Part shown: positions 16,309 through 51,690 of the stretch, in pieces
Layout of the letters: each line of letters starts with the position of its first letter
How positions within the stretch are numbered: the stretch's first letter is position 1
DNA from: Catenulispora sp. MAP5-51
GTDB lineage: Bacteria; Actinomycetota; Actinomycetes; Streptomycetales; Catenulisporaceae
Reading direction: 5' to 3'
Length of the DNA: 64,000 bases
NCBI RefSeq assembly: GCF_041261205.1
Contig: NZ_JBGCCH010000019.1
Location: 1 to 64,000 of the forward strand
Translations under genes and position numbers: made by a program
Notes under the pieces: model-generated
Told to the model about the DNA's origin: nothing
Database searches by the model: none
The model's input: the letters and a program-made list of their open reading frames with translations, nothing else

Positions 16309-16741
16309 GGGGTGCTCCTGTGGTGCGGGTGGATCCCCTGTCTCCAGGTGATCTCACAAATCCACTTCTGACCAGGCTCTGGACAAGCAGTTTCGATAAC
16401 GAAACGGACCGCTTCCGCGGGAATGGTGGGGGAAGAATAGGTAGTCTCGCAGGCGAGTCTTCACGCCATTTCGATGACCGCCTCGCTCTGCCGTACCGAC
16501 GCCTGAAGACGGCGAAGATTTCAACGGCCCCTTGAAGGCGTGCTGTACACCAATATCGGCCGAATCAATCACCGGGGCAACAGCACGAACGGTCACACCA
16601 GGCCTGGTCGTCTCACCGAGCCTGCGCGCGATAGGCGCACGGCCAACAGCGCGAAGAACACCCGGCCAGAAGCCACCTCCCCCACCGCAGCGCGTCTGCC
16701 GGACCGCGGTGGGGGAGGTGTTCTTGCTGGTCAGATGGCCA
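16309..16741. other. Gene-poor stretch between the GGDEF pair and the first GH3 gene
   Basis: No convincing gene is seen. ORFs crossing it have poor composition and overlap one another. The right part holds the terminator at 16674-16720, and the left part should hold the promoter of the leftward small gene/GGDEF pair. Confidence 0.6.
16674..16720 (-). terminator. Hairpin downstream of GH3 gene 1
   Basis: Perfect 15-base arms (16674-16688 and 16706-16720, CACCTCCCCCACCGC and its complement) enclose a 17-base loop. The hairpin lies 22 bp past the stop of the leftward GH3 gene. There is no U-tract, which is common in actinomycete terminators. Confidence 0.7.
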
Positions 16742-19700
16742 CTATCCGGCAAGTGCTGTTGCGAAGAGGTGGATCTGCGTGTTGCTTGGCAGTGTCACGT
16801 AGGCGAGCTGCTTTCCCGTCGACAGCGGCACGGATGTCGCGTACAGGCTCACCTGGTGATCTGCGGGGAGCCCGCTTCCGGCCGGGCGGTTCCAGTACGG
16901 CGCGGTGGCCGCGAGTGTGCACCCGGGGACGGCAGCGTCGGAGTACCAGTCGGCGACGGTGATCGGCGCCGAGGTGGTGGTGCCGTCGGTGTAGGTGACG
17001 GTGACTGTGCCGCTTTGGGTGCCGAAGGTGCCGGTGCCGAGGAACGACAGGCTTGAACCGGATCCGCTCAGGGCGACGATCTGGCCGTTCGTGCTGACCG
17101 CGTCCGGCTGCCCGGCTGGGATGTCCGGCCAGGTGAAACCTGCGATGCTCGATCCCGGAGCCACGCCGGCTGAGGCGAGGGCCTGTGCGGAGAAGCTGTA
17201 TCCGGAGCCGTCGAGGTTGCCTGCCGCCGGGTTGCTGTCGTCGCTGACGCCGACGGTGTCGTAGGTGGCGGCGAGGTTTGCGTATGCCACGTTGACCGTG
17301 GCTGTTCCCGGCTCATGGGTTCCTGGGCCGGCGTAGGCGGTCGATGCGGACAGTGTTGCCGAGCCGCCGTGCGCCGTGCTCGGTACGGTGACCGACCAGC
17401 TGGTCGTGACCGTCTGCCCGGGTGCGACGACCGGGAAGGTATTGGCGGTCGTGGCCTTGGCCGTCCAGCCGGCCGGAGCGGTCAGGGCGGTTTTCGCCTG
17501 TCGCACCGGCTGGGTGGCGCCGTTGGTGAACGTGGTGGACACCGACAAGGTGTCACCTGCCGAAGTCACCTTCGGTGCGGTGACGCTTGTGGAGCGCGGG
17601 CCGGTGGTGGTGGTGACCGCGAACGTGCCGCTCAGCGGCAGGCTGCGCGAGGAGTCTCCGACGCGCACGGTGTAGCTGCCGGTGCCGAGCGCCCACGCCT
17701 GTGCGGGGGTGTTCCAGTAGGAGGCGTCCTGGGCGGTCAGGTCGAAATGCACCTGCTTGGTCTGTCCGGGGGCGAGTTGAACCTTCTGGAATCCCTTCAG
17801 CTGGCTGTTCGGTTCGCCGGTGGAGGCGGGGTCGGTCAGGTACAGCTGCGCGACTTCGGCGCCGGCTCGGGTTCCGGTGTTGGTGACGTTTGCGGTGACC
17901 TGCAGGTGGCCGTTCTCGGTGAGGGTGGGTGCCGAGAGGTGCAGGTTGCTGAAGGCGAAGGTCGTGTAGGACTGGCCGTATCCGAACGGGAACAGTGGCG
18001 TCAGGTCCTTGGTGTCGTACCAGCGGTAGCCGACGTCCAGGCCTTCGGAGTACTGCACGGTGTTGTTGGTGCCGGGCCACTGTGCGGGTGTGGAGGCCGG
18101 TACCTGCGCGAGGGAGGTCGGGAAGGTCACCGGGAGCTTGCCGGAGGGGTCGGCGTCGCCGAACAGCAGCGCCGCGATGGCGTTGCCGGCCTGCTGGCCC
18201 GGGTACCAGGCTTCGAAGACGCCTTTGACCTGGTTCAGCCATGGCATGGTGACCGCGCTGCCGGTGTTCAGCACGACGATGGTGTTCGGGTTGGCCGCGG
18301 CCACGGCGCTGATCAGTTGGTTCTGTGATCCGGGCAGGTCGATGTCGGCGAGGTCGCCGCCTTCGGACTCGGGGTCGCTGGCGTACACGATCGCCACGTC
18401 GGAGCGGGCGGCGAGTGCCGCTGCCTGGCTGGTGGGCGTCTGGCCCGGGGCCAGCCAACCGAGGTTGACTGAGGCGTCGCCGCCGTTCTGGTAGTAGTCG
18501 ACCTCGACCTGGACCGGCTGTCCGGCGGTCAGCGGCACCTGCGCGGTCTCGGTGTTGGCTGCCTGGTCGCGCCAGTTGTCGATGACCTGTTGGCCGTTGA
18601 TGAACAGTCTGCTGCCGTCATCGCTGGTCAGGCCGAAGGTGTAGGTGCCGGTCGTCGGTGGGGTGAGTGTGCCGGTCCACTTCGTGGAGTAGTTCGTGGT
18701 GCCGAGCCCTGCTGCGGGGGAGGTGCCGGACCAGTTGAAGGAGACCTGTGCGTCGGTACGGGTGGCTACCGGGGTGCCGGACAGTGTCATGTTGTTGTAG
18801 TAGGCGCCTGACAGGCCGTGCCCGGTTCCGCTGGACGGGGTGAGGTACTGGCTGTCGATAGCCGGCAGCTGGCCGCCGAGTTGGCCGCCGGGGGAGTATT
18901 CGACGTCGATCCCCGAGCCGGCGCGAGCCTTGATCCCGGCGTACGGGGTGATGGTGCCGGTTCCGGCGACCGTGCCGCTGCCTCCGCCCGCGGTCAATGT
19001 GTCGTCGCCGATCACCGCGATGGAGTGCAGCTTGCCGGCCTGGAGCGGCAGGATGCCGCCGTCGTTCTTGAGCAGCACGGTGCCGTCTTCGCTGGCCTGC
19101 TGGGCGGTGGCCAGGTGCGCGGGGGTGGAGGCGTTCGCGTTGGGGGTGTCCGGCAGCGGGTGGTCGAACAGGCCGAAGCGGAATTCCTCGCGCAGGATGC
19201 GGGTGACCATGTCGTCCAGCCGGCTTTGCGGAACCTGGTTGAACTGCACGGCCTGCTTGAGCGCGGCGCCGAAGTAGGAGTCGTCCGGCATCTGCATGTC
19301 CATGCCGGCGTTGGCCGACGCCACCGTGGAGTGCGTGGCGCCCCAGTCGGAGGTGATGAACCCGGAGAAGCCGAAGTCGTCCTTGAGGATGGTGTTCAGG
19401 TACGCGTTCTCGCAGGCGTAGACGCCGTTGACGTTGCTGTAGGAGCACATCACCGACGAGGGCTGCGATTGGGCGACCGCCGCGCCGAACGCGGCGGTGT
19501 AGATCTCGTGGACCGTGCGGTCGTCGATGACGGCGTTGTCGGCGGGGGTGTTGCGGTTGGTCTCCTGGTTGTACACGGCCCAGTGCTTGACCTGTGCCAT
19601 GACGCCCTGGGACTGGATGCCGTTGATGTCGCCGGCGGCGATCTGCCCGGTGAGGTACGGGTCCTCGCTGTAGGACTCGAATGCGCGCCCCCACCGCGGA

Positions 19701-20149
19701 TCGCGCACGATGTTGATGGTCGGGCCGAGGTCGACCTCGGAGCCCTTGGTCTTGTCCTCGGCGCCGATCACGGCGCCGTAGGACGTGGCCAGCGACGGGT
19801 CGAACGACGCGGCCAGATCGGCGGCTGCCGGCAGTTGGGTGGTGTTGTCCATGCGGACGCCGACCGGCCCGTCCTGCATCTTCAGCGCGGGGATGCACAG
19901 CCTGCTGTCGCCGGGGATGTAGCCGGTGTACACGGAGCCGCCGGCTCCGTGCACCATGGCGATCTTCTCGTCGATGCTCATCTGTGCCAGCACCTGGGCG
20001 GCGCGGGTGTCGACCGGCGCGGTCGAGCCGACCCAGGGACAGGACGGGGTGGCGGCATGGGCGACGGTGGTGGGGGACGGGACGGTCAGCGCCGCGCCGA
20101 CGAGGACGAGCGGAGCGAAGGCGCGTAAAAACGATTTCACCGTACTCAT
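16742..20149 (-). CDS. Secreted GH3 beta-glycosidase with PA14 insert and C-terminal NEW3-type module
   Basis: The 1135-residue product has a signal peptide ending near 30-32 (VAHA|ATPS). The GH3 N-terminal barrel follows, with the nucleophile in GFITSDWG (D268), RDPRWGRAFES at 149-159 and KHWAVYNQET. The second GH3 domain contains a PA14 insert (GLSGAYYNN to SRLFINGQQVIDNW), a probable substrate-selecting module. A fibronectin III-like domain is next, then an NEW3-like beta-sandwich, and a final module of about 200 residues I do not recognise. Members hydrolyse beta-glucosides, beta-galactosides or beta-xylosides exo-wise; the substrate cannot be read here. Divergent ROK repressor gene upstream; terminator downstream. 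It is the first of three GH3 paralogues. Confidence 0.9.
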   Translation of the reverse strand: MSTVKSFLRAFAPLVLVGAALTVPSPTTVAHAATPSCPWVGSTAPVDTRAAQVLAQMSIDEKIAMVHGAGGSVYTGYIPGDSRLCIPALKMQDGPVGVRMDNTTQLPAAADLAASFDPSLATSYGAVIGAEDKTKGSEVDLGPTINIVRDPRWGRAFESYSEDPYLTGQIAAGDINGIQSQGVMAQVKHWAVYNQETNRNTPADNAVIDDRTVHEIYTAAFGAAVAQSQPSSVMCSYSNVNGVYACENAYLNTILKDDFGFSGFITSDWGATHSTVASANAGMDMQMPDDSYFGAALKQAVQFNQVPQSRLDDMVTRILREEFRFGLFDHPLPDTPNANASTPAHLATAQQASEDGTVLLKNDGGILPLQAGKLHSIAVIGDDTLTAGGGSGTVAGTGTITPYAGIKARAGSGIDVEYSPGGQLGGQLPAIDSQYLTPSSGTGHGLSGAYYNNMTLSGTPVATRTDAQVSFNWSGTSPAAGLGTTNYSTKWTGTLTPPTTGTYTFGLTSDDGSRLFINGQQVIDNWRDQAANTETAQVPLTAGQPVQVEVDYYQNGGDASVNLGWLAPGQTPTSQAAALAARSDVAIVYASDPESEGGDLADIDLPGSQNQLISAVAAANPNTIVVLNTGSAVTMPWLNQVKGVFEAWYPGQQAGNAIAALLFGDADPSGKLPVTFPTSLAQVPASTPAQWPGTNNTVQYSEGLDVGYRWYDTKDLTPLFPFGYGQSYTTFAFSNLHLSAPTLTENGHLQVTANVTNTGTRAGAEVAQLYLTDPASTGEPNSQLKGFQKVQLAPGQTKQVHFDLTAQDASYWNTPAQAWALGTGSYTVRVGDSSRSLPLSGTFAVTTTTGPRSTSVTAPKVTSAGDTLSVSTTFTNGATQPVRQAKTALTAPAGWTAKATTANTFPVVAPGQTVTTSWSVTVPSTAHGGSATLSASTAYAGPGTHEPGTATVNVAYANLAATYDTVGVSDDSNPAAGNLDGSGYSFSAQALASAGVAPGSSIAGFTWPDIPAGQPDAVSTNGQIVALSGSGSSLSFLGTGTFGTQSGTVTVTYTDGTTTSAPITVADWYSDAAVPGCTLAATAPYWNRPAGSGLPADHQVSLYATSVPLSTGKQLAYVTLPSNTQIHLFATALAG

Positions 20150-20358
20150 GAGGGGCTCCTGCGGTAGGCGGCCAACGGTGGAAGTTTCTGGAATCTTTCT
20201 CGCGTCGCACCAATCATGTCAATGGATCGCCGTTTTAATCCCGATCTAGATTAAAGAAGCAGACGAAGAGCTGGTGGTCGCGGGCTCGGCCCTCCCCGCA
20301 GGAGGTCTTTTGTCCCAAGCCATGGATTAATACCAGATGTGCTGCCTATGCTGCGAGG
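20150..20358. promoter_or_regulatory. Divergent GH3/ROK regulatory region with inverted repeat
   Basis: The intergenic region contains a perfect inverted repeat, TTTAATC at 20234-20240 and GATTAAA at 20249-20255, separated by eight bases. A second partly symmetric AT-rich site, TGGATTAATACCA, lies near 20324-20336, close to the ROK start. In such GC-rich DNA these AT-rich repeats between a hydrolase and a ROK gene are good operator candidates for the ROK protein. Confidence 0.55.
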
Positions 20359-21501
20359 GTGACTACGAGGGATGCGAACCTCAGACGTGTCTTCGATCTT
20401 GTGCGAGAGCGCGGGACCATCACCCGCGCCGAGGTCTCGATCCAAACGCAGCTGTCGCGAAGCGCCGTGTCGAATCTGGTTACCGAGTTGATCGACAGCG
20501 GCCGTATCGTCGAGCGCGCCGGTGCCGCCAAAGGCCCTGGATCCGGCAGCGGCCGGCCCTCGCTGGTGCTCGCGCCAGTGCTGCCAGACGGCGTCCTGCT
20601 CGCGATCGACTTCGGGCACAACCACCTTCGGGTCGCCGCCGCCGACATGGCCGGCGGCATTCGCGCCGAGCGCAGCGCGGAGCTCGACGTCGATGCGCAC
20701 GCCGCGCAGGCCATGGACCGGTGCGCGAACCTGATCGCCTGGGTGCTCGCCGACGCCGGCGTCGAACGAGGCGCGGTGCTGGCCGCGGCGGCCGGCATCC
20801 CAGGCCCGCTGGACAACGGGGCTCAGCGCAAGGTGCGCTCGCCCACGATCCTGGCCGATTGGGTCGACCTGTCCCCGGCCGTGGAGCTGGAACGCCGCAT
20901 CGGCCATCCGGTGGCCATAGACAACGACGCCAATCTCGGTGCCCTGGGCGAGCTGCACTACGGTGCCGGCCGCGATGCGGGCGATTTCATCTACGTCAAG
21001 GCCTCGCACGGCATCGGCGCGAGCATCGTGCTCAACGGACAGCCCTACCGCGGGGCGTCGGGCATCGCCGGCGAGATCGGGCACACCCAGATTCCGGGCG
21101 GCGCCCAATGGTGCCGGTGCGGCAACCGCGGTTGTCTGGAGACCGCCGTTTCGATCGAGATCGTGCGCGCCGAACTTCACCGGTTGCGGCCGGCACTGGT
21201 CGATCCCGCCGTCGCCGCCGAAGACCCGGTCGCCCGGCGCATCCTGACCGAGGCCGGCCGCACCATCGGCCGCGTCGTCGCAGACCTGTGCAACTGCCTC
21301 AACCCCGCCGCCGTCATCCTCGGCGGCGACCTGGGCGAGTACGGCGCGGCCGTCGTCGACGGACTGCGCGACTCGATCGACCGCTACGCCCAGCCCGCAG
21401 TCTCCGAAACGGTGACCGTGCGCCCCGCCGCGAACGGCCGGCGCGCCGAACTGCTCGGCGCGATCGCACTCGCCGCCCAGCACGCCACCTATCACCTCTG
21501 A
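20359..21501 (+). CDS. ROK-family transcriptional repressor
   Basis: The 380-residue protein has an N-terminal winged HTH (residues 5-55, TRAEVSIQTQLSRSAVSNLVTEL) and a C-terminal sugar-kinase-like ROK domain. IDNDANLGALGE is near 193-204, then the GEIGH motif and the zinc-binding CRCGNRGCLE (C-x-C-x4-C) typical of the family. ROK repressors leave DNA when a sugar binds. It is divergent from GH3 gene 1 with an AT-rich repeat between them, so it probably controls that enzyme and itself. GTG start at 20359. It is clearly less similar to the two ROK genes near 36 kb than those are to each other. Confidence 0.9.
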   Translation: MTTRDANLRRVFDLVRERGTITRAEVSIQTQLSRSAVSNLVTELIDSGRIVERAGAAKGPGSGSGRPSLVLAPVLPDGVLLAIDFGHNHLRVAAADMAGGIRAERSAELDVDAHAAQAMDRCANLIAWVLADAGVERGAVLAAAAGIPGPLDNGAQRKVRSPTILADWVDLSPAVELERRIGHPVAIDNDANLGALGELHYGAGRDAGDFIYVKASHGIGASIVLNGQPYRGASGIAGEIGHTQIPGGAQWCRCGNRGCLETAVSIEIVRAELHRLRPALVDPAVAAEDPVARRILTEAGRTIGRVVADLCNCLNPAAVILGGDLGEYGAAVVDGLRDSIDRYAQPAVSETVTVRPAANGRRAELLGAIALAAQHATYHL

Positions 21502-21589
21502 CCAGAACGCCGCGCTCGGCCTGTACCAAACCGGATTACGAGCACTGCGATGGGCGATGGTCATCCCTGTCGGCGTGTGACGCCGCTTG

Positions 21590-21987
21590 CTACCCGTCCC
21601 GGTTCTGTGCCTGGCCGTGGTACCCGGTCCTCTGGAGTTGCCTGCGGGTGGTGTGGAGTTTCTTGAGCACGTTGGTGACGTGGCGTTCGACGGTGCGCGG
21701 TGACAGGCCGAGCGCGTCGGCGATGTCCTGGTTCGCGGCGGAGTCGGCGAGCAGGCGGGCGACTTCGATCTCACGAGGAGACAGTTCGGTGCCGTAGCCG
21801 CGGCGGCCGCGGGGTCCAGCCGGGCCAGGCCGAGTTCGCGTTGGGTCCGTTGGCAGCGGCCTGTGTCGGCGGTGGCGCCGAGCCGTGTGAAGATCTCGAT
21901 GGCACGGTTGAGCTCATCTGCTGCGAGCAGAGGGCGGTCGTGCCGGTGGGCGGTGGCGGCGTGTTCCATCGCGTGGGCGCCCTGGTA
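21590..21987 (-). pseudogene. C-terminal fragment of a LAL/LuxR regulator, frameshifted
   Basis: Leftward frames here reproduce the last 130 or so residues of the intact LAL regulator at 48757-51690. They cover the RPLLAADELNRA/IFTRLGA region, RELGLARL, then, after a frame change near 21820, the GTELSPREIEVA and LSPRTVERHVTNVLKKLHTTR helix-turn-helix. The remaining 850 residues are missing and the copy stops abruptly near 21987, where a peptidase fragment on the other strand begins. It is therefore a truncated, frameshifted paralogue. Confidence 0.8.
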
Positions 21988-21998
21988 GGGGGGTCCGG

Positions 21999-22289
21999 CC
22001 CAAGGCCCAGGACTTCGGATTCGACGACGAACTCGCTGCCTTCGGCCTGCAGTTCGGCCACGGCCTCGGCCTGGGACTGCACGAGCGCCCGATCATCTCC
22101 CGGCTGAACAGCATGAAGGAGCCCGTGGAACTGCAAGAGGGCATGGTGTTCGCGCTGGAGACCTACTGCCCGGCCGACGACGGGTTCTCCGCCGCCCGGA
22201 TCGAAGAGGAAGTCGTCGTGACCGCCGACGGTCCGCGAGTGCTCACCCTCTTCCCGGCGCAGGACCTCTTCGTCGCCAACCCCTACTGA
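21999..22289 (+). pseudogene. C-terminal fragment of an M24 (creatinase/Xaa-Pro dipeptidase-like) peptidase
   Basis: The open frame without a start codon reads about 96 residues to TGA 22287-22289. It has GLQFGHGLGLGLHERPIISR, then VELQEGMVFALETY and a final VTADGPRVLT segment. This is the metal-binding C-terminal half of M24 peptidases (HGxGxxxHE and the E of ALE). The N-terminal two thirds are missing, cut at the junction with the LAL fragment. It ends 25 bp before an aldehyde dehydrogenase start, which looks like remains of a real operon. Confidence 0.75.
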
Positions 22290-22314
22290 ACAGCCCCGGC
22301 TGCCAAGGAGAACC

Positions 22315-22722
22315 ATGAGTCCCTTCGAGGACGTCGAAAGCATTTTGGGCACCATCCCCCGTGGACCGATCGCCGGCGGGCAGACGATCGACGGGGACGG
22401 CACGATCAGCGTCGTGGACCCGGCGACCGAGGAGGTCCTGGTCGACATCGCCGCCGGCACCGTGGACACGGCTCTCGTCGCGGTCGACGCCGCCGAGCAG
22501 GCGATGCCGAGTTGGGCGGCGGCCAGTCCCCGGCACCGCAGCGACGTCCTGCGCCGGGCGTACGAGTTGATGGTCGCGCGGTCCGAGGCGCTGGCCCGGC
22601 TCATCGTGCTGGAGAACGGAAAGGCGCTCGCCGACGCCCGCGGCGAGGTCGCCTACGCCGCGGAGTTCTTCCGCTGGGGTTTGGGCGAGGCGAGATGGTC
22701 GCGAGTCCGCGCGCCGGGCTGA
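22315..22722 (+). pseudogene. N-terminal fragment of an aldehyde dehydrogenase (succinate-semialdehyde type)
   Basis: From ATG 22315 the frame matches the start of NAD(P)-dependent aldehyde dehydrogenases: ISVVDPATEEVLVDI, ALVAVDAAEQAMPSWA, LRRAYELMVARSEALARLI and LENGKALADARGEVAYAAEFF. Similarity ends near 22685, where the frame runs into unrelated sequence and stops. Normal length is about 480 residues. The active-site cysteine and glutamate regions are absent, so it is non-functional. Confidence 0.8.
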
Positions 22723-22742
22723 AGGGAACAAGCCACGCCAGA

Positions 22743-22769
22743 ACCGCCCGGTCGCTGGGACCGGGCGGT
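22743..22769 (-). terminator. Hairpin downstream of GH3 gene 2
   Basis: Perfect 11-base arms, ACCGCCCGGTC at 22743-22753 and its complement at 22759-22769, with a five-base loop. It lies about 60 bp past the stop of the leftward GH3 gene. Confidence 0.75.
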
Positions 22770-22827
22770 ATCTCTCACTCAGCTGTCGGGCCGCTTCGTG
22801 GGCTGCCCTGGCTGATCTGGGTGTCGG

Positions 22828-25800
22828 CTAGGGCAGATTCCATTGCTGGTTGGATGTGCCGTAGCAGTCGAAGAGCTGCAGTTTGGTGCCGTTGTTCGTG
22901 CCCAAGCTGGTGGCGTCGAGGCACTTGCCGAAGGCTGTCAGCTGGTGGGTGGTCGGGTTGTAGGTCCATTGCTGGGCGGCTGTGCCGTTGCAGGTGGAGA
23001 TGTCTACCGGGGTGTTGTTGTTGCTGGAGGCTCCGGCCACGTCCAGGCACTCGCCCAGGGAGCGGATGGTGCCGTCGCCGGGCTGGGACCAGGTCTGCGC
23101 CGCGGTGCTGTTGCAGTCGTAGAGCTGCAGTTGCGGGGAGCCGGTGGTGTCGGCTGCGGGGATGTCGACGCAGCGGCCGCTGCCGACCCCGGTGATCGTG
23201 TGGATCGGTGATACCCAGGACTGGTTCGCGGCGCCGGTGCACGGGTCGATCACGACCTGTGTGCCGTTGGTCGCGGTGGACTCCGGGTCGGTCAGGCACT
23301 TGCCGGAGTTGGGGTTGAGCAGGGCGCCGTTCGCCTGGTGTTGCCAGATTTGGGCGCCGCTGCCGTTGCAGGTGTAGATCTGCACTCGGGTGCCGTCGTT
23401 GGTGCCGGCCCCTGCCACGTCCAGGCACGTGCCGCTCGCGCGGACGGTGCCGTCGGAGTACTCGGACCACTGCTGGGCGGTGGTGCCGTTGCAGTCGTAG
23501 ACCTCTACCTTGTTGGTGTCGTTGTTGTTGCCGCCGGCTAGGTCGAGGCACTTGCCGCCGGGGCCGATCAGGGGGGTGGCCACGGCCGCTTCGGCGGGCA
23601 CCACGGTCCACAGGAAGCTGGTCGTGGCCAGCGCTCCGGCGGAGTCGGTGGCGGTGATGGTGACGGTGCTGGTTGCGGGGGTGGTCGGGGTGCCGGTGAT
23701 CTGCCCGGTGGGGGAGATCACGGTGCCGACCGGGAGCCCGGTGGCGGTGAAGTCCGGAGTCTGTCCGCTGGTGGTGTCGGCGGCCGCGGCCTGCAGGGAC
23801 ACCGCGGTGCCGGTCGGGCCTTCCTGGGGGCCGGGGTTGGTGAGGGCGAGCGGCTGGCCGATCTGTGTGGGGGTGACGCTCAGCGTTCCCTTCAGCGGGA
23901 GGTTCGCGTCCGATGCGGCGTCGCCCACGGAGATGCCGTAGTCGCCGGTGCTGGTGGTCAGGGTGGCGTCGGTGGTGTCGTAGTGCTGCAGGTTGCGCTG
24001 GGTCAGCTCGAAGGTGACGGTCTTGCTCTGCCCGGCCTGAAGGTCGACGCGGTCGAAGCCCTGCAGTTGCCTGACCGGCTCGCCGGCGGAGGACGGCTGG
24101 GTGAGGTAGAGCTGGGCGACGTCGGCGCCGGCGCGTGCGCCGGTGTTGGTGACGGTGGCGGTGACGGTGGCCGCGCCGCCCTGCGGCAGCGTGCCGACGT
24201 GCAGGTTGCTGAAGGAGAAGCTGGTGTAGGACTGGCCGTAGCCGAACGGGAAGAGCGGCGTGATGTTCTTGGCGTCATACCAGCGGTAGCCCACGTCGAC
24301 GCCCTCGGAGTACTGCACGGTGCTGTTGGTGCCGGGCCACTGCGCTGTGGTGCTCGCCGGCACGTCGCTGAGCGACTTGGGGAAGGTCACGGGCAGGTGG
24401 CCGGAGGGGTTGGTGTCGCCGAACAGCAGGGAGGCGATGGCGTTGCCGTCCTCCTGGCCGGGGTACCAGGCCTCGAAGACACCGGCGACCTGGTTGATCC
24501 ACGGCATGGTCACCGCGGAGCCGGTGTTGAGGACGACGATGGTGTGCGGGTTGGCGGCGGCGACGGCGGAGATGAGCTGGTTCTCCCGCCAGGGCAGGTC
24601 GATGGAGGGCAGGTCGCTGCCCTCTGCTTCGAAGGTGCTGGCGAACACGACCGGGACATCGGAGTTGCGGGCGGCCGTGACGGCGTCATTGATCGGGCCT
24701 GTGCCGGGCGGTTCCCAGCCCAGGGAGAGGTTGGATCCACCGCCGTTCTGGTAGTAGTCGACTTCGACGGGGACCGGCTGCCCGGCAGTGAGTGTGACGG
24801 TTCCGTACGCGGTGGTGGAGGCGTGGTCGCTCCAGTTGTCCACGATCGTCTGGCCGTTGACGAGCAGCCGGCTGCCGTCGTCGCTGTTGAGCGAGAACGT
24901 GTAGGTGCCGGTAGTGGGTGCGGTGAGGGTGCCGGTCCACTTGGCCGACCAGCTGGTGCCGGCGATACCGGGTCCGGGGGAGTTGCCGCCCCAGTCGAAG
25001 TCCACGGCCGGGTCGGTACGGGTGAGGGCCGGGGCCCCGGACAGGTCCGTGGTCGGGTAGAAGGTGGTGGTGAGGCCGTTGCCGCTGCCGGCTGATGGGG
25101 TGAGGGCGCTGGACGGGACGGTCGGCAGCGCGGCGGTGACGCTGCCCGGCACGTACTGGGTTTTGATGCCCGCGCCAGCGCGGGCGGCGATGCCCTGGTA
25201 GGGCGTCACCAAGGTGTCCGCGTGGACCTCGGCGCTACCGCCGCCGCCGCTTTGGGCGTGGCTGCCGGCGTCGTCGCCGATCACCGCGATCGAGCTGGTG
25301 GACGCTGCCAGCGGGAGCGTGTTGCCGCTGTTCTTGAGCAGCACCGTGCCCTCGGCGGCGAGCTGGGTGGCGGCGCTCTGGTCGGTGGCGTTGGTGGCCG
25401 GTTGCGCGGGCGATCCGGTTGGTGCCTGGTCGAATTGGCCGAAGGCGAACATCTGGGTCAGGATCAGCGAGACGGCGTTGTCGATCGTGGACTTGCTCAC
25501 CGAGCCGTTGCCGTACGCCGTCTTCAGGGCGTCATTGTAATGGCTGGTGGGCGGCATGTCCTGATCCAGGCCCGCGTTCGCCGCGTTCTGGACGTACGGC
25601 TGATACAGGTTGTTGTTGTCGTCGACCAGGCCCCCGTCCCAGTCGGAGGTGATGAAGCCGGTGAAGCCGAACTGCTTGCGCAGCACGGAATCCAGAAGCT
25701 GCGTGTTCTGGCAGGCAGGGGTGTTGTTGATCCAGTTGTAGGAGCACATCACCGAGGAGGGTGCGCCCTGCTGCACCGCGGTCTGGAAGGCGGGCAGGTA

Positions 25801-26496
25801 GATCTCCTGCAGCGCCTGGTCGCTGATGATCGCGTTGTCGGGGGATTTGTTGCGGTAGGTTTCCTGGTTGTAGGCGGCCAGGTGCTTGAGCTGGGCCATC
25901 ACTCCGGTGGACTGCACGCCGCGGATGTTGGCCGCGCCCATCTGCCCGTTGAGGTAGGGGTCCTCGCCGACGGTTTCGAAGGCGCGGCCCCAGCGCGGGT
26001 CCCGCACGATGTTGATGGTCGGCCCGAGCTCGACCGTCGCACCCTTGGCGGCCTGCTCGGCGCCGATGACCTGGCCGTAGGTCTGCTCGGCGCCGGTGTC
26101 CCAGGTGGCGGCGATATCCACCGGTGCCGGAAGCTGGGTCGCGCCCGTCATCCCCCAGTCGTCGCCCACGCCGGCGGGGCCGTCGTTCAGGTTCATCGCG
26201 GGTATGCACAGCGAGCCGATCGCCGGTGTGGAACCGGGGTATCTTGTTCCGCCGGTCCCGGCCATCACCGCGATCTCCTGATCGATCGTCATCCGCGACA
26301 GCAGCTGGCTGACGCGCTGCGGGATCGGCGCACTGGAGTGCACCCATGGACACGCGGCGCTGATGCCGCTCGCCGAGGCGGTGCCGGCGCTCGCGGTCTC
26401 GGCGCCGGTACTCAGCACACCGGCGCCACCGGCAGCCAGGGCGAGGACAGCGAGGGCCGCGGCGCGTCTCTTTGCTTGCGTTCGAGACTTGTGCAT
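22828..26496 (-). CDS. Secreted GH3 beta-glycosidase with PA14, Ig-like and two ricin-type lectin domains
   Basis: Starting at ATG 26496 the product is 1222 residues, with a signal peptide in the first 35-40. The GH3 catalytic part has RDPRWGRAFET at 165-175 and nucleophile D285 in GFITSDWDG. A PA14 insert (SRLLVNGQTIVDNW), the GH3 fibronectin-like domain and a He_PIG/Ig-like module (VGTVISPTGQITGTP) follow. Two ricin-B/CBM13 domains close the protein, each with QxW-type repeats such as GKCLDLAGG, AQQW and GECLDVAGA. The lectins should tether the enzyme to an insoluble galactose- or xylose-containing glycan. A longer frame extends upstream, but the signal sequence fixes the start. A terminator-like hairpin separates it from the GH30 gene. 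Confidence 0.9.
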   Translation of the reverse strand: MHKSRTQAKRRAAALAVLALAAGGAGVLSTGAETASAGTASASGISAACPWVHSSAPIPQRVSQLLSRMTIDQEIAVMAGTGGTRYPGSTPAIGSLCIPAMNLNDGPAGVGDDWGMTGATQLPAPVDIAATWDTGAEQTYGQVIGAEQAAKGATVELGPTINIVRDPRWGRAFETVGEDPYLNGQMGAANIRGVQSTGVMAQLKHLAAYNQETYRNKSPDNAIISDQALQEIYLPAFQTAVQQGAPSSVMCSYNWINNTPACQNTQLLDSVLRKQFGFTGFITSDWDGGLVDDNNNLYQPYVQNAANAGLDQDMPPTSHYNDALKTAYGNGSVSKSTIDNAVSLILTQMFAFGQFDQAPTGSPAQPATNATDQSAATQLAAEGTVLLKNSGNTLPLAASTSSIAVIGDDAGSHAQSGGGGSAEVHADTLVTPYQGIAARAGAGIKTQYVPGSVTAALPTVPSSALTPSAGSGNGLTTTFYPTTDLSGAPALTRTDPAVDFDWGGNSPGPGIAGTSWSAKWTGTLTAPTTGTYTFSLNSDDGSRLLVNGQTIVDNWSDHASTTAYGTVTLTAGQPVPVEVDYYQNGGGSNLSLGWEPPGTGPINDAVTAARNSDVPVVFASTFEAEGSDLPSIDLPWRENQLISAVAAANPHTIVVLNTGSAVTMPWINQVAGVFEAWYPGQEDGNAIASLLFGDTNPSGHLPVTFPKSLSDVPASTTAQWPGTNSTVQYSEGVDVGYRWYDAKNITPLFPFGYGQSYTSFSFSNLHVGTLPQGGAATVTATVTNTGARAGADVAQLYLTQPSSAGEPVRQLQGFDRVDLQAGQSKTVTFELTQRNLQHYDTTDATLTTSTGDYGISVGDAASDANLPLKGTLSVTPTQIGQPLALTNPGPQEGPTGTAVSLQAAAADTTSGQTPDFTATGLPVGTVISPTGQITGTPTTPATSTVTITATDSAGALATTSFLWTVVPAEAAVATPLIGPGGKCLDLAGGNNNDTNKVEVYDCNGTTAQQWSEYSDGTVRASGTCLDVAGAGTNDGTRVQIYTCNGSGAQIWQHQANGALLNPNSGKCLTDPESTATNGTQVVIDPCTGAANQSWVSPIHTITGVGSGRCVDIPAADTTGSPQLQLYDCNSTAAQTWSQPGDGTIRSLGECLDVAGASSNNNTPVDISTCNGTAAQQWTYNPTTHQLTAFGKCLDATSLGTNNGTKLQLFDCYGTSNQQWNLP

Positions 26497-26633
26497 TGGA
26501 CTTCCCAGGGATTGGGTGGATTCGGGTTGAACCGGGACGGACTGCCCGTTTGGGGCTCGGTGGTGGTCCTGGATCCGCGAAAGCCGCAGGGCGCGCGGCG
26601 ATGCCGGGGCCACCATCAGGCAGATGAGAACTC

Positions 26634-32427: not shown

Positions 32428-35034
32428 TCAGCTGGAAGCGGTGTAGCTGTCGAGGCTGACGTAGGTGCCGCTGCTGCGCGGGTCAGACTGCCCGGTGCAG
32501 GTGATGGTGACGGTGTGGCTGCCGTAAGTGAGACGCGGGCTGGTGAACACCAGTTGGCCGAAGACGGCGGAGCCCGGGGTGTACAGGTTCACGTTCACGG
32601 CCGGGCCGCCGTCGATGGACACCGCGGCGATGCCGTTGTCCGAGGTTTGCGAGGCGAACACCGAGATGGTGGATCCGGTGACCGTGGTGCTCGCCGCGGC
32701 GCCGGTGGAGTTGGTGTAGTGGTTGGCTCCGCCGTAGCAGCCCGCGCAGCCGGCGTTGCCCCAGGAGCCGGTGTAACTGGCTGCGGTGTCGTCGATGCGG
32801 GTCGGCGCTCCGGTGCCTGCGCCGGAGTAGGCGCCACGGTTGGGGACCGTGCCGTTCAGGTTGCCCCACAGGTCCTGGCCGTCGTTGGCGGGTATCTCCT
32901 GGCCCCAGTTCGGGACGACCGTGCCGCTGGCCAGTGCCGGGGATCCGGCCGAGAGCTGGTAGCCGCCGAGCGTGGCGATGCCGTAGGCGTCCCCGGTGGG
33001 GCCGACGAACTGGGGGTCGGCGGTGGAGGCGTTGTAGCCCGCGGCGGCGAAGCCGATGAAGGTGTTGTTCGCGTAGGTCGGTCCGGACGGGACCCATACG
33101 GCCGATCCGGACGGTCCGCGGAAGATGTTGTTGTCGAACTCGGCGTAGGACGGGGCGGGGCTGCTCGTGTCCCAGGTCTTGGTCCCGCAGTCGATGGTGT
33201 TGTTGGAGAACCGGTACGAGGCGAGGTTGCCGCTCATGTTGATGATGCGGCAGTCGTTGACCGAGACGTTGTGCCGGTAGACGATCACGGTCGCCTCGGC
33301 ACCGCCGCACCCGACGCAGTCCAGCAGGATGCCGCCGGCGTTGTCGTGGTCGTAGTTGTCCTGATAGGTGCAGGTACCGGTGATGTAGCCGTCGCAGTCC
33401 CAGGCCTCGCTGTCGTGGCTCTGGAGGGTGATGTTGGAGACCTCGTTGAACTGGAAGGTGGGGTTGGTGTCGCCCCAGCCCCAGATCCCGGCGATCAGGA
33501 CGGCGTTGACCGCGGTCCAGCCGAGCTGGTCGGCGGTGTTGTGGTCGATCAGCGGCGAGTCCGAGACGCACACGACAATGCCGTCGTTGGAGATGTCCTT
33601 CAGGGTGTTGCCCTGGATGAGGACTTGCTGGTTGCGCACCGCGTTGTTGTTGTTCCCGGTGTCCTGGTCACCGTAGAGGCCGATGCCGTTGCCGTGCAGG
33701 TCGTGGACGTAGTTGTCGGCGATGGTCAGGCCCTTGACGAAGCCGCCGTCATAGGGCAGGTCCACGCCGATGCCGTGCGAGAGGTAGAAGTCCTTGTAGT
33801 TCGCGCCGCGGTCGGAGAATCCGGTGACGTCGGTGACCTCGGTGTCGCGGATCGTGATGCCGTCGTGCTCGGTCTTGTCGTCGACCAGGATGTCGATGCC
33901 GGAACGGCGGGCCTCGGCGCCGGCGTGGTTGGTGACCTTCAGGTTCTGGATGATCCAGTAACTCTGGTCGGTCAGCTGCACCGCCCCGCCTCCGAGGGCC
34001 GGGCTGCCGGCGGCCGCGACGCCGTTGCCTGCGACCGTCGGGTTGGCGCCGGTGCCGTAGGCGTCGAGGGTGATCGGCGCGGCGGCGGTGCCGCTGCCCC
34101 GGGGTGCGAGCTGCCCGGTGCAGGTGGTTCCGCGCTTGAGCAGCAGGCTGTCACCGGGGGCGAAGGTGTGGGCGTCCGCCGAGGCCACGGTGTTCCAGGG
34201 CGAGCCCTGGCTGCCGTTGCCGCCGGTGGCTGCCGAGCAGTCCAGATACCAGGCGGTGCCGCTGCTGGGCGCGGAGACGGTCCAGGTGAACGTGGTGCTG
34301 GCGATCGCACCCTTCAGGTCGGTCGCGGTCAGGGTGGCGGTGTAGGTGCCGGGGGAGGTCGGTGCTCCTTGCACGGTGCCGTTGATGTAGTTCATCGCCA
34401 TGCCGGGGGGCAGGCCGGTGGCCGACCAGGCGTACGGGGCCGTGCCGCCGGATCCGGTCGGTCGCAGACCGGTCGCCGCGCCCACCACGGCGTTCTGGCC
34501 GGATGGCGCCGACACCGCCAGGGCCAGGCCGTCGGGCAGCGACCACTGCTGCGCAGCGGTGAGGTTGCAGTCGTAAATGTCCAGCTGCAGGCCGTTGGTC
34601 GCGCTTCCGCCGGGGGCGTCAAGACAGCGGCCGGAGGCGGTTCCGACCAGTCGCCCGTTCGCATCCGGCGTCCACTTCTGGCTGGAGCCGCCGGTGCAAT
34701 CCGACAGGTCGACGCCGATTCCGTTCGTCGTGCCCTGGCCGGCAGTCTCCAGGCACTTGCCGTTGGGTCCGCCGAGGTGAAGGGTTCCGTCAGAACCGAC
34801 ATACCAGGATTGCGCCGAGGTGCCGTTACAGTCCCACACCTCGATCTTGGTGCCGTTCTGGGTGGAGCCGCCGGCATCATCGACACACTTGCCGGCGATG
34901 CCGACGATCTCGCCGGTGGCCCCGGCCGCCGCCTGGGCGGCGGGGGCCGCGGCGATCGTGGTGAACGCGGGCGCCGCGGCGACCGCTAGCGCGACGGCCC
35001 ATCGGGCCGATCGCTGAGTGAGGGTCAGGGACAC
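32428..35034 (-). CDS. Secreted right-handed beta-helix protein with N-terminal ricin-type lectin
   Basis: The 868-residue product has a signal peptide ending AAQAAA (about 37). A ricin-B lectin occupies about 40-170 (GKCVDDAGGS, GKCLETAGQG, GRCLDAPGG repeats). A putative Ig-like/He_PIG domain (GLPPGMAMNYINGTVQG) covers about 175-265. From about 275 to 660 it is rich in short Asn/Gly/Ile repeats typical of pectate-lyase-like parallel beta-helices (NGIGLYGDQ, NNTIDCG). The last 100 residues look like a galactose-binding beta-sandwich (VYVSLDSYTASS-like end). No classical lyase or GH28 active site stands out, so the activity is open: polysaccharide lyase, glycosidase or a binding protein. Its promoter lies next to the ROK gene, and it heads the leftward secreted-enzyme series. 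Confidence 0.85.
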   Translation of the reverse strand: MSLTLTQRSARWAVALAVAAAPAFTTIAAAPAAQAAAGATGEIVGIAGKCVDDAGGSTQNGTKIEVWDCNGTSAQSWYVGSDGTLHLGGPNGKCLETAGQGTTNGIGVDLSDCTGGSSQKWTPDANGRLVGTASGRCLDAPGGSATNGLQLDIYDCNLTAAQQWSLPDGLALAVSAPSGQNAVVGAATGLRPTGSGGTAPYAWSATGLPPGMAMNYINGTVQGAPTSPGTYTATLTATDLKGAIASTTFTWTVSAPSSGTAWYLDCSAATGGNGSQGSPWNTVASADAHTFAPGDSLLLKRGTTCTGQLAPRGSGTAAAPITLDAYGTGANPTVAGNGVAAAGSPALGGGAVQLTDQSYWIIQNLKVTNHAGAEARRSGIDILVDDKTEHDGITIRDTEVTDVTGFSDRGANYKDFYLSHGIGVDLPYDGGFVKGLTIADNYVHDLHGNGIGLYGDQDTGNNNNAVRNQQVLIQGNTLKDISNDGIVVCVSDSPLIDHNTADQLGWTAVNAVLIAGIWGWGDTNPTFQFNEVSNITLQSHDSEAWDCDGYITGTCTYQDNYDHDNAGGILLDCVGCGGAEATVIVYRHNVSVNDCRIINMSGNLASYRFSNNTIDCGTKTWDTSSPAPSYAEFDNNIFRGPSGSAVWVPSGPTYANNTFIGFAAAGYNASTADPQFVGPTGDAYGIATLGGYQLSAGSPALASGTVVPNWGQEIPANDGQDLWGNLNGTVPNRGAYSGAGTGAPTRIDDTAASYTGSWGNAGCAGCYGGANHYTNSTGAAASTTVTGSTISVFASQTSDNGIAAVSIDGGPAVNVNLYTPGSAVFGQLVFTSPRLTYGSHTVTITCTGQSDPRSSGTYVSLDSYTASS

Positions 35035-36737: not shown

Positions 36738-36745
36738 CTGTTCAG

Positions 36746-37963: not shown

Positions 37964-37987
37964 CCCACCGCCAGCGCCCGCCCACGC

Positions 37988-43817: not shown

Positions 43818-43831
43818 ACGAAGAAGGACAC

Positions 43832-47659: not shown

Positions 47660-47752
47660 AGGATCTGATCGGCCATGACGGTCCGGCCGGTGTCTTCGGA
47701 CACATGAGATGAGGGTGCCGACAATCGCTGCGAGCTGGGATGATGCCATGTC

Positions 47753-47955
47753 GTGGGGTTGAAGCTGATCCATCTGGTCGTGGCCCGGATGTTCTCGTGG
47801 CTGTGGTTGGGCGGGCGGGATCCGGCGGCGAAAGACGTCGAGATTTTGATGCTGCGTCATCAGCTTGCTGTGGCACAGCATCGTGATCGCGCCTGGCTCG
47901 TAAGCTGACCTGGGCCGATCGTGCATGGCTGGTGTTGCTGGCCGGGGGGCGCAGA
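47753..47955 (+). pseudogene. N-terminal remnant of an IS481-like transposase
   Basis: The frame from GTG 47753 reads LKLIHLVVARMFSWLWLGG, then DPAAKDVEILMLRHQLAVAQH, and stops at 47906. After a frame change it continues as KLTWADRAWLVLLAG. These align with [36 protein letters not shown] and [13 protein letters not shown] of the transposase at 52077. The remaining 250 residues are absent, replaced by an ISKra4 remnant on the opposite strand. Confidence 0.7.
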
Positions 47956-47959
47956 TGAA

Positions 47960-48670
47960 TCGGAGTGACTTCGTCGATCAGGCTGTGAGCTGGTTTTGCT
48001 GCTGGTAGCGGGTTGTGTGGTTGCGGCGGTGTTCGGCAACGAGATGGCGCCAGTAGGCGTCGAAGCCGAACGTTGGAAATCAGGGCCCGGAGTTTTAGGA
48101 CGGCTTCGGTGCCGGCCAGTGACCAGCGGGCTCCGGTGATGTCCAGGCGGTCGGCGATAAGGTGGCGGGCTGCGCCCTCGACGATGCCGGTGGCGATCGG
48201 CCAGCCGGCCGTGAGGGCGGTGTCGTACCTCAGGTAGTCGTTCTTGTTCCGAAGGTAGGTGACGGTCTCGCCGATCTGCTTGCGGTCCTCGGGGTTTGTG
48301 CCGTGTTTCGGCCGCGGCGGCGAGCAGGTCGGCGATGTCGGCTGATCTGCCGTTCAGGATGGTCAGGGCCCATTCGGCGACCGCGGCGTCGGTGTCGTCG
48401 CCGTGCAGGATGCGGGCGGCGGCGTGCAGGTATTGCAGGACGTGTATTACGTCGATCACGATGTGGATCGGCGAGTTCCGCTTCGCGGCCTCGGCGCGGA
48501 TGGCGTCGATCTGCGCGATCGCACCGCCCTCCAGGACATCACCCCGGCCAGTTCGACGCCGCGAACCTGTTTCGCCGTCGCGGCTGTCTCCGACCGTTGC
48601 GCCTGCTCCGGCGCCGCCGGGCAATCGGTCCTCGTCAAGACGGCGCGCCGGAAGTCGGTAGTATAGTTTG
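47960..48670 (-). pseudogene. ISKra4-type transposase, frameshifted C-terminal remnant
   Basis: Leftward frames give RNSPIHIVIDVIHVLQYLHAA, then a helical DAAVAEWALTILNG stretch. After a shift they give RKQIGETVTYLRNKNDYLRY, AGWPIATGIVEGAARHLIADR and LDITGARWSLAGTEAVLKLRAL, the conserved C-terminal half of ISKra4-family transposases. At least two frame changes (near 48300 and 48080) show it is dead. The N-terminal half and the element ends were not found. Boundaries are approximate. Confidence 0.7.
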
Positions 48671-48756
48671 TCTTGTTTCCAAGCTGTAGACGAGGTGGGA
48701 GCACGGCGGCTCCGCCAGTTGCGTGCCTGCTGTTTAGAGCGGGGCGAATCGAATCC

Positions 48757-51690
48757 ATGGGATGGTCGGCCAAGGGTGAGAACTCGGGTGGCCAAGGCGT
48801 GACGCCAAGCCGCGGCTTCGCAATGGTGGGGCGCGAGGATGAGTTGGTTCTCGTGTGTGGGGCTTTGGCCAGCCCGCCAGCTGTGGTGCTGGTGGATGGT
48901 GAGGCGGGTGTGGGTAAGTCCCGGCTGGTGTTTGAGGCCGGTCGGCAGTTGTCGCACAGTGGGTTGCGGGTGCTGACCGGGTTGTGCCACCGGTTGCGTG
49001 AGCCTCTGCCGTTCGGCCCGGTGCTGGATGCATTGCGCCTGGTAGGGCCGTGGCTGCCCGAACCGAAACAGCTTGCCTCGCAGGCCGGTGCGCTCGGGGT
49101 GCTGCTGCCGGATCTGGCCGGTCGTCTCCCCGATGCGCCTGCGGTTCCGGAGGATCCGCGGGCGGCGCGGTTTCAGTTGGTGGGGGCGGTGCGCGCGATC
49201 CTGGATGCGCTTGGCCCGGTGGTGCTGGTGGTGGAGGATGTGCACTGGGCGGATGAGGCCACCCGGGATTTGCTTCTGTTCTTGGCTCGGGACCTGCCCC
49301 GTCGAGCCGGGCTTTTGCTGACCTACCGGCGCGAGGACCTGCCGGATCGCGATGCGGTGCTCGGCTCGGCCTACCGTCGGCCGGTCGGCACCGGTGGCGC
49401 GGAGGTGCACCTCGGGCCTCTCACGCGTGCCGAGGTCGACGAACTGGCCGGTAAGGTGCTCGGATCTCGCGGGAACCCCACGCTGGGGAGGGCGCTGTTC
49501 GAGCGTAGCGGCGGACTGCCGCTGGTGGTGGAAGAGGACCTGATCACGCTGACCGAACCGGCTCATCGCGCCCGCCTGCTCACTACCGACGGTTCAACCC
49601 TCGCCTCGACAGGGGGCGAGGCTGCGATGTTGGCTCGGGCGGGGGTGCCACGCGGACTGCACGAGGCGGTCACCGCCCGTATGCACGGGCTCGGCCCCCA
49701 GGCCACGGCAATCGTGCAGGCCGCGGCGGTGCTCGCGGTCCCGGCCGCACGGGCGCTACTTGGTGCGGTCGCCAGTCTCGGCCCTGTGCAGACTGATGAG
49801 GCGTTGATCGAGGTTCTGGACGCGATGGTGCTGAGCGAGCCGGCGGCGGCGCGGTACGGTTTCCGCCACGCACTAGCTCAACAGGCGGTCTACCGGGCGA
49901 TACCCGGACCGCGCCGCGAGGACCTGCATCAACATGCGGTTAAGGTACTTTCGGCCCAGTCGCCGCCCCCGCTGGTGCAGATCGCTTACCACACTCGCGC
50001 CCTCGGCGATACCGAAGTGTGGCTGGAGCGGGCTGAGCAGGCCGCCGACCAGGCCATCGCACTCGGTGACCAGGGCACTGCCGCGGTGCTGTTACGCGAA
50101 ATCCTAGATCAACCCAACCTGCAGGTGGAGCTCCGCACCCGAGCCGCCCTGGCCCTAGCACGTTTCGCCGTCTTCAGCACCGAATCCTCGGCCAGCATAG
50201 CCACCCTGCGTCGGATCCTGTCCGACCCGCACCTGCCTACCAAGGTACGCGGTGAGGTCCGCCTCACCCTCGGCCTGCTCATGACGAACAATGCGCTCGA
50301 TGCCAGAGGAGGATATCGCGCGGTCGAGCGCAGCGTGCGGGAACTTGAGGGTGCTCGCCCCGAACTATTGTTGCGCGCGATGGTTGCGCTGGCGACGGGC
50401 AGCGAAACATACGCGGAGGGGCAACAATGGATGCGCCGCGCCGAAGCCGCCGCGAACGACAGTCCCGACCAAGTGGCCCGCGCCGCAGTGCGGGCGAGCA
50501 GCCTGACTCTCATGGCTCTTCATGGCGATCCCGCCGTATGGGAGTCGGTGCGCGACCTGCCAAGAAGCTCGAAGGACCCGGCCGTCCTGCGGCAAGTCGC
50601 CCGCGCTCTTTACAACGTTGGCTCGTCCGCCTTCGAGCTCGGGTGCGACGCGCGCGTCCCCGATTTACTTGAGGAGGCCATGGAACTCTCGCGGCAGGCC
50701 GGCTATCTCGGTCTGGTGGCCATGGGGGGTGACTGCATGCTGGCGTTGGACTTGCGCGCCGGCCGCTGGTCCCGGCTGGACGAACGTGCCTCAGCGCTCG
50801 CAGCCGAGTTCCCCGAAATGGCCACGGTAGTACGTGGCGCCGAGCAACTCCATGGAAGCCTCGCAGCTGCCCGAGGGCAGTGGACGCGAGCGCTCGAGCA
50901 CCTGGGGCGGGCTGCCGACATGGTCAAGAACTCAGATGGCACCGGGCTCAATGACGTGCTTCGCATAGCTGCCGACACCGCCCGCATCTACCTGAGTCTC
51001 GACAAGCCTCAGGCCGCCTACACCGCCATCGCGCCGCCCGTAGAACGCCTGCGCCGCACCGGTCGCTGGGCGCGCGTGGATGACGTACTAGCGGTCGCCG
51101 TCCAAGCCGCGCTGGCCACCGGACACGAAGCTGACGCCCGGCAACTTCTGAGTGAAGCCGAGCACGGCCTGAACGGCCTCGATGCCCCAGGCGCCACCGC
51201 CGACCTGCACCTGGCACGCGGCATCCTGCAACTACACGAAGGTGATTCCAAAAGCGCCGCCGACGACTTCGACCGCGCACGCATCATGTACAACGCCATT
51301 GGCCGCCCCCACCAAACCGCCCGCGCCATCGAACACACCGCTGCCGCCCACCAAACCCAACAACCCCTGCTCGCCGCCGACGAACTCACCCAGGCCGCCG
51401 AGATCTACACCCGCCTCGGTGCCCCCGCCGATGCGGCCCGCTGCCAACGCGCCCAACGACAGCTCGGCCTGACTCGACCCCAGCCCCGCGGACGACGCGG
51501 CTACGGCACCGAACTGTCCCCCCGCGAAACCGAGGTCGCCCGCCAACTCGCGGACGGCGCCACCAATCAGGACATCGCCCACGCCCTCTCCCTCTCCCCC
51601 CGCACCGTCGAACACCACGTCACCAACGTCCTCAAAAAACTCCACACCACCCGCACACAACTCCAGAAGTCGGGCTTCCATGTACCCTGA
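48757..51690 (+). CDS. LAL-type (large ATP-binding) LuxR-family transcriptional regulator
   Basis: From ATG 48757 this is a 977-residue protein. The N-terminal AAA-like ATPase begins MVGREDEL, has Walker A GEAGVGKS at 48-55 and a Walker B VLVVEDVHWAD near 142-152. A long TPR-like helical middle follows. The C-terminal LuxR helix-turn-helix reads ELSPRETEVARQLADG, then LSPRTVEHHVTNVLKKLH. Such regulators activate sugar-use or antibiotic clusters in response to a ligand. Its neighbours on both sides are IS remnants, so its target is not evident; the glycan locus to the left is possible. GTG 48799 would be a shorter alternative start. A truncated paralogue lies at 21590-21987. Confidence 0.9.
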   Translation: MGWSAKGENSGGQGVTPSRGFAMVGREDELVLVCGALASPPAVVLVDGEAGVGKSRLVFEAGRQLSHSGLRVLTGLCHRLREPLPFGPVLDALRLVGPWLPEPKQLASQAGALGVLLPDLAGRLPDAPAVPEDPRAARFQLVGAVRAILDALGPVVLVVEDVHWADEATRDLLLFLARDLPRRAGLLLTYRREDLPDRDAVLGSAYRRPVGTGGAEVHLGPLTRAEVDELAGKVLGSRGNPTLGRALFERSGGLPLVVEEDLITLTEPAHRARLLTTDGSTLASTGGEAAMLARAGVPRGLHEAVTARMHGLGPQATAIVQAAAVLAVPAARALLGAVASLGPVQTDEALIEVLDAMVLSEPAAARYGFRHALAQQAVYRAIPGPRREDLHQHAVKVLSAQSPPPLVQIAYHTRALGDTEVWLERAEQAADQAIALGDQGTAAVLLREILDQPNLQVELRTRAALALARFAVFSTESSASIATLRRILSDPHLPTKVRGEVRLTLGLLMTNNALDARGGYRAVERSVRELEGARPELLLRAMVALATGSETYAEGQQWMRRAEAAANDSPDQVARAAVRASSLTLMALHGDPAVWESVRDLPRSSKDPAVLRQVARALYNVGSSAFELGCDARVPDLLEEAMELSRQAGYLGLVAMGGDCMLALDLRAGRWSRLDERASALAAEFPEMATVVRGAEQLHGSLAAARGQWTRALEHLGRAADMVKNSDGTGLNDVLRIAADTARIYLSLDKPQAAYTAIAPPVERLRRTGRWARVDDVLAVAVQAALATGHEADARQLLSEAEHGLNGLDAPGATADLHLARGILQLHEGDSKSAADDFDRARIMYNAIGRPHQTARAIEHTAAAHQTQQPLLAADELTQAAEIYTRLGAPADAARCQRAQRQLGLTRPQPRGRRGYGTELSPRETEVARQLADGATNQDIAHALSLSPRTVEHHVTNVLKKLHTTRTQLQKSGFHVP

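What the first reader, a model, noticed from the sequence alone, without database searches (positions are those of the whole stretch)
21590..22722. Three truncated genes fused end to end inside the glycan locus
A LAL C-terminus (minus strand), an M24 peptidase C-terminus and an aldehyde dehydrogenase N-terminus abut within 1.1 kb. The LAL piece matches the intact regulator at 48757-51690 on the opposite strand, so recombination between inverted LAL copies or a deletion/insertion may have reshaped the 22-48 kb segment.
Basis: partly seen in the sequence, partly recalled or inferred. Interest (0 to 1): 0.5.

Follow-up and report, generated by a model that had tools for sequence, protein, structure and literature searches.

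The report
Ordinary gene-debris scar between sugar-enzyme genes
Between two groups of sugar-degrading genes in a Catenulispora soil bacterium lies a 1.1-kilobase graveyard holding the tail of a dead regulator gene and a leftover slice of a lost two-gene operon; it is a real but ordinary trace of past DNA loss and reshuffling.

Summary
In detail: a LAL-type regulator C-terminus (minus strand, frameshifted), an M24 peptidase C-terminus and an aldehyde dehydrogenase (ALDH) N-terminus abut in the convergent gap between a ROK gene and a GH3 gene. It is not "three genes fused". M24-then-ALDH is a natural operon order: C. rubra has both intact, 11 bp apart, and 17 of 80 retrieved M24 loci have an ALDH next. 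So the scar is two pieces with two junctions: LAL|M24 near 21993-21998 and ALDH|GH3 flank at 22680-22694. The intact LAL (48673-51690) is the nearest relative found for the LAL piece, but only 78% identical in DNA, and it sits between repeated, transposase-like sequences. Homologous exchange between inverted copies would neither truncate genes nor make a LAL|M24 joint, so that mechanism is not supported; deletion or other illegitimate joining fits. C. rubra carries the neighbouring GH3-ROK pair (85% identical) with no scar beside it, on another contig than its M24 operon. The closest relative by rpoB shows no near-identical match left of 53.7 kb in the searches made. The M24 piece shows no excess protein change, suggesting a recent break. 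Reads were not available, so an assembly fault is not strictly excluded.

The parts
16742..20149 (-). GH3 beta-glucosidase-type gene (left flank module)
   Evidence: Pfam GH3 N and C, PA14, Fn3-like; block 16641-21490 is 85% identical to C. rubra G001:C567 44273-39419
20359..21501 (+). ROK-family regulator, intact, left neighbour of the scar
   Evidence: PF00480 E 1.9e-48; 84% aa identity to the C. rubra neighbour; homology to C. rubra stops at 21490
21590..21996 (-). LAL regulator C-terminal remnant, frame change near 21811-21814, 5' part missing
   Evidence: tblastn to the intact LAL E 1.8e-43; 78% DNA identity over 375 bp; frames
21993..21998 (.). junction 1, LAL | M24, with a short GGCC-type overlap
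   Evidence: base-level comparison of window, intact LAL and M24 homologues
21993..22289 (+). M24 peptidase C-terminal remnant, open frame with its own stop, about four fifths of the gene missing
   Evidence: PF00557 E 1.1e-12; aligns to residues 389-484 of 484 of the C. rubra protein
22315..22694 (+). aldehyde dehydrogenase N-terminal remnant; homology ends between 22680 and 22694, out-of-family residues to a stop at 22720-22722
   Evidence: PF00171 E 6.9e-23; alignments
22680..22694 (.). junction 2, ALDH | downstream flank of the GH3 gene
22828..26616 (-). GH3 gene with ricin-type lectin domains, right neighbour of the scar
   Evidence: Pfam
48673..51690 (+). intact LAL regulator (AAA_16 + LuxR-type HTH), nearest relative found of the LAL piece
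   Evidence: Pfam
47710..48526 (.). multi-copy sequence upstream of the intact LAL, read as transposase remnants (inference, no family call)
   Evidence: repeated in the genome and genus at 75-90% identity
52002..53198 (+). multi-copy insertion-sequence remnant just downstream of the intact LAL
   Evidence: 86-90% identical copies on G000 contigs C7, C44, C32; rve_3 and HTH_32 domains

Best explanation
A non-functional deletion scar. A LAL regulator gene (relative of the intact LAL in the same window) and an M24-ALDH catabolic operon were both cut down to short remnants by at least two illegitimate joining events: one joined the LAL 3' part to the M24 3' part, removing the LAL 5' part, the M24 5' part and whatever lay between; the other cut the ALDH gene after about 121-126 codons and joined it to the downstream flank of a GH3 gene. 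Whether the second event was a deletion or the arrival of a glycoside-hydrolase module is open. The debris persists because it lies between the 3' ends of two convergent genes. Shown: the fragments, their borders, the natural M24-ALDH order, the mosaic surroundings. Inferred: the mechanism, the number and order of events, lack of function.
For: Fragments and borders. M24-ALDH intact and 11 bp apart in C. rubra (L029), ALDH next in 17 of 80 M24 loci. 0 of those 80 loci held a LAL match at E 1e-5. Rest of the operon (VOC, E1, LacI-type genes of L029) gave no DNA match in the own genome; the only M24 match there is the piece itself (40 of 1307 candidates scored). GH3-ROK is 85% identical in C. 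rubra, with no match there to window 21491-22913. The closest relative by rpoB, G008 (99% nt), gave no listed match over 90% left of 53.68 kb but 85-97% collinear blocks from C19:68783 on. LAL piece frameshifted. Short GGCC-type overlap at junction 1, weak in GC-rich DNA.
Against: No relative with the pre-scar arrangement (LAL beside M24) was found, so neither deletion nor its partner sequences are shown directly. The M24 piece shows no relaxed selection: mean pN 0.106 to 13 intact homologues, against 0.104-0.140 for those among themselves; fits a recent break but would also fit retained function. The weak tree pairs the M24 piece with a Mycolicibacterium, not C. rubra (82/86, unresolved), so it may have arrived horizontally, already cut.
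Confidence: 0.85

Rival explanations
1. Recombination between inverted LAL copies (21.6 kb and 48.7-51.7 kb) inverted the 22-48 kb segment and made the scar.
For: The two LAL copies are inverted and are each other's nearest relatives found: 78% DNA identity against 72% for the next.
Against: Reciprocal exchange would leave both copies full length and make no LAL|M24 joint (inference). Identity is low and the piece is about 380 bp. Copies differ by 34 of 127 residues. Nothing of the M24/ALDH piece lies near the intact LAL.
Confidence: 0.04
2. Assembly artefact: the 0.7-kb M24/ALDH slice or the joint with the LAL piece was misjoined in this 87-contig draft.
For: Draft assembly of 87 contigs; LAL-type and ALDH genes are multi-copy in the genome; no reads available.
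Against: Two joints 0.7 kb apart would both have to be false. The M24 sequence has no second copy in the genome to be misjoined from. The contig is 179,748 bp and completeness/contamination is 99.97/1.69.
Confidence: 0.06
3. The remnants have been kept for a function: for example the LuxR-type HTH frame (74 codons, 21814-21590) or the M24 tail frame as a small protein or regulatory RNA.
For: The M24 frame is open with no excess amino-acid change; the HTH part is 83% identical to the intact LAL.
Against: LAL frame broken; no promoter-like site in 21480-22860 (sigma-70 consensus only, poorly suited to actinomycetes); M24 and ALDH lack, respectively, the N-terminal and C-terminal catalytic parts.
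Confidence: 0.04

Closest known systems
Gene remnants (pseudogene fragments) left by deletion or illegitimate recombination in bacterial genomes
   Same: Truncated, frameshifted homologues of intact genes, in an intergenic gap of a mosaic, transposase-rich region
   Different: Nothing in kind; only the particular genes
M24 peptidase - aldehyde dehydrogenase operon of actinobacteria and proteobacteria (C. rubra G001:C224)
   Same: Order, strand and tight spacing of the M24 end and ALDH start
   Different: Here only the M24 tail and the ALDH head remain; the downstream VOC and E1 genes were not found in the genome
M24 tail remnant before an intact ALDH in G010 (same family, another genus; L033 8478-8591)
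   Same: M24 reduced to its C-terminal end just before ALDH; no full M24 in that genome at E 1e-40
   Different: Only 38 aa of M24 are left and the ALDH is full length; a different break, hence a separate loss

Membership tests
Pseudogene remnant / deletion scar | Homology to only part of a longer conserved gene | tested here: met
   PF00557 148-208 of 208, PF00171 7-105 of 461; LAL residues 877-1003 of 1005
Pseudogene remnant / deletion scar | Disrupted reading frame | tested here: met
   Met for LAL (frame change 21811-21814) and for ALDH (family homology lost after 121-126 codons, stop at 22720). Not met for the M24 piece, whose remaining frame is open
Pseudogene remnant / deletion scar | Relaxed selection since inactivation | tested here: inconclusive
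   M24 piece: no excess pN. ALDH: mean identity 62.9% to nine intact actinobacterial ALDHs, against 62.4-71.4% among them. LAL: piece less like 10 of 12 outgroup LALs than the intact copy is, equal for 1, more for 1
Pseudogene remnant / deletion scar | Relative with the intact ancestral arrangement | tested here: not met
   M24-ALDH intact in C. rubra, but no locus with LAL beside M24 in 80 loci
Inversion by inverted-repeat recombination | Two long, near-identical inverted repeats | tested here: not met
   78% over 375 bp
Inversion by inverted-repeat recombination | Segment orientation differs from relatives | tested here: inconclusive
   No relative with the whole segment found among 9 genus genomes
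LAL regulator (the intact gene) | N-terminal AAA ATPase and C-terminal LuxR-type HTH in about 900-1000 aa (definition recalled) | tested here: met
   AAA_16 52-216 and GerE 947-993 of 1005 aa
M24-ALDH operon | ALDH directly downstream of M24 on the same strand | tested here: met
   17 of 80 loci and the window
DddP DMSP lyase or DoeA ectoine hydrolase (for the intact C. rubra M24) | NCBIfam curated score | tested here: not met
   DddP 90 bits against a cut-off of 600, DoeA 56 against 613

The most novel reading that the evidence does not exclude
The M24-ALDH operon is lost repeatedly in Catenulisporaceae by breaks inside M24 that spare the M24 3' end, possibly because that end carries signals for ALDH translation; the window would then be a second step of such loss, after a G010-like stage. 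Two cases (window and G010) are seen.
Probability: 0.07. Interest if true: 0.25.

Novelty: new member of a known kind. Interest (0 to 1): 0.12.

Why it matters
It shows that the region between the two glycan modules was rearranged, probably recently, and names the lost genes. That helps anyone annotating the locus: no gene should be called at 21590-22722, and the intact LAL should not be taken as having been split. It does not change any general view.

Tried and rejected
Inverted-LAL recombination: rejected as the cause (see rivals), not excluded as an unrelated later event. Triple fusion: rejected, because M24 and ALDH are operon neighbours with their own stop and start. Missing halves of M24, ALDH or LAL elsewhere in the genome, as a reciprocal rearrangement would leave: not found for M24; for ALDH only more distant full-length paralogues such as C1:630070-631403 at 67%; for LAL only the intact copy and other paralogues. 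These searches scored a part of the candidates (40 of 1307, 26 of 186, 30 of 1038).

Vertical or horizontal origin of the M24/ALDH slice: unresolved. dS to C. rubra is 0.89 for M24 and 0.90 for ALDH, against 0.45 for ROK, 0.37 for GH3 and 0.12 for rpoB, which leans to separate acquisition, but a tree of 96 columns is too short. In the rpoB table one row (L152, G007) was dropped because the script took a wrong frame (31% aa identity); G003 and G005 had no rpoB match, so six of nine relatives were compared. The 80 loci vary from 3.4 to 20.3 kb, so a LAL further away would be missed.

Sigma-70 and terminator scan: one weak terminator-like site, no more than shuffles give. Papers: two searches gave listings and starts of abstracts only; nothing on this locus among the 20 listed; no paper was opened.

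Full report
What is there. Window 21501-22828 is the gap between the 3' ends of a ROK gene (20359-21501, plus) and a GH3-lectin gene (22828-26616, minus). It holds three partial genes. On the minus strand, 21996-21617 matches residues 877-1003 of the intact LAL, in two frames that change near 21811-21814. On the plus strand, 21999-22286 matches residues 389-484 of the 484-aa M24 protein of G001, and 22315 to about 22680 matches the first quarter of an aldehyde dehydrogenase. G001 is Catenulispora rubra DSM 44948: its contig C224 has the length (64,516) of the named record that brought L075, and the ALDH there is 100% identical over 480 aa. The window is thus from a Catenulispora (same genus).

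Two pieces, not three. In C. rubra M24 (L029 4426-5880, minus) is followed after 11 bp by ALDH (2972-4414), then a VOC protein and a fused E1 alpha/beta dehydrogenase, with a LacI-type gene upstream. In 80 retrieved M24 loci, 17 have an ALDH start within the set range (-50 to +600 bp) after the M24 end, in actinobacteria and proteobacteria. In the window the M24 stop and ALDH ATG are 25 bp apart. The M24/ALDH part is therefore one slice of an operon. Only two joints are abnormal.

Joint 1. The last LAL-like codon is 21996-21994; M24 homology begins at 21993-21999. The window reads CGGCC where M24 homologues read TGGCC (a conserved Trp codon) and the intact LAL reads CGGCC on the same strand. 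This fits a break inside a short overlap, but such overlaps are common in GC-rich DNA. Joint 2. ALDH homology is clear to the Trp codon 22677-22679 and doubtful to 22694; then comes the flank of the GH3 gene.

The LAL pair. The intact LAL is the nearest relative found for the piece: 78% DNA identity over 375 bp; the next best are 72% in 60 relatives and 72% in 394 genomes sampled from the class, where 3 of 394 matched at E 1e-25, the own genome included. Outside the window the intact LAL itself has at best 51% aa identity in 31 genomes searched. Upstream (47710-48526) and downstream (52002-53198) of it lie sequences repeated in the genome; the latter encodes rve_3/HTH_32 domains; calling the former transposase remnants is my inference. 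The pair is therefore an old paralogous pair, not a recent duplication, and too short and divergent a repeat for efficient homologous exchange (inference from general knowledge).

Relatives. C. rubra C567 carries GH3 and ROK at 85% identity over window 16641-21490; similarity stops there and window 21491-22913 has no match in C567 20000-46796. Its M24 operon is on contig C224; both are draft contigs, so their distance is unknown. G008 is the closest by rpoB among six usable comparisons (99% nt). Its best listed matches to window 1-32900 and 35000-53680 are at most 90%, and the higher of these lie in the repeated element at 52-53.2 kb; 32,901-34,999 was compared only with G008:C7 40000-99999. 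At 53680-55303 the two are 99% identical, and from C19:68783 on they run collinear at 84-97%. So the scar lies in a stretch that differs between sister species: gained here or lost there, not decided. C19 begins at window base 1, so the left border is not visible.

Age. The M24 piece has mean pN 0.106 to 13 intact homologues, whose own means are 0.104-0.140: no sign of long neutral drift. The ALDH piece is at the low end of the intact range (62.9% against 62.4-71.4%). The LAL piece is slightly more diverged than the intact copy against 10 of 12 outgroups. A recent break is the simplest reading; retained function is possible but has no positive support.

A parallel case. In G010 (same family) a 38-residue M24 tail stands before a full-length ALDH, and no M24 match at E 1e-40 was found in that genome. 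G012 and G013 have the ALDH; I saw no M24 tail in the 300 bases upstream, by eye. Losses of M24 thus happened more than once in this family, unless G010's tail and the window's share an older history.

Verdict. Real, correctly located, mis-described as a triple fusion, and ordinary: debris of a regulator gene and of a catabolic operon in a mosaic region.

Noticed in passing
L033 8478-8591 (G010:C328): 38-aa M24 C-terminal remnant directly before an intact ALDH in another genus of the family, a separate loss of the same M24 gene.
   Followed up: partly
window 53680-55303: Only block of the window found near-identical (99%) to the closest relative G008 (C7:68964-70589); flanked by non-matching DNA on both sides.
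   Followed up: partly
window 52002-53198: Degenerate multi-copy insertion sequence (86-90% copies on several contigs) just downstream of the intact LAL.
   Followed up: no
window 899-2326: DDE transposase (PF13701) near the contig start; with 58878-60476 (serine recombinase) it marks a mobile-element-rich contig end.
   Followed up: no
window 41813-46299 and G000:C32:102854-107215: The sugar-acid catabolism genes (mandelate-racemase type, SDR, KDPG aldolase, PfkB, SMP-30) have a second, 69-78% identical cluster in the same genome.
   Followed up: no
L029 262-5880 (C. rubra): Operon M24 - ALDH - VOC - fused E1 alpha/beta beside a branched-chain-type ABC transporter; M24 is far below the NCBIfam cut-offs of DddP and DoeA, so its substrate is unknown.
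   Followed up: partly
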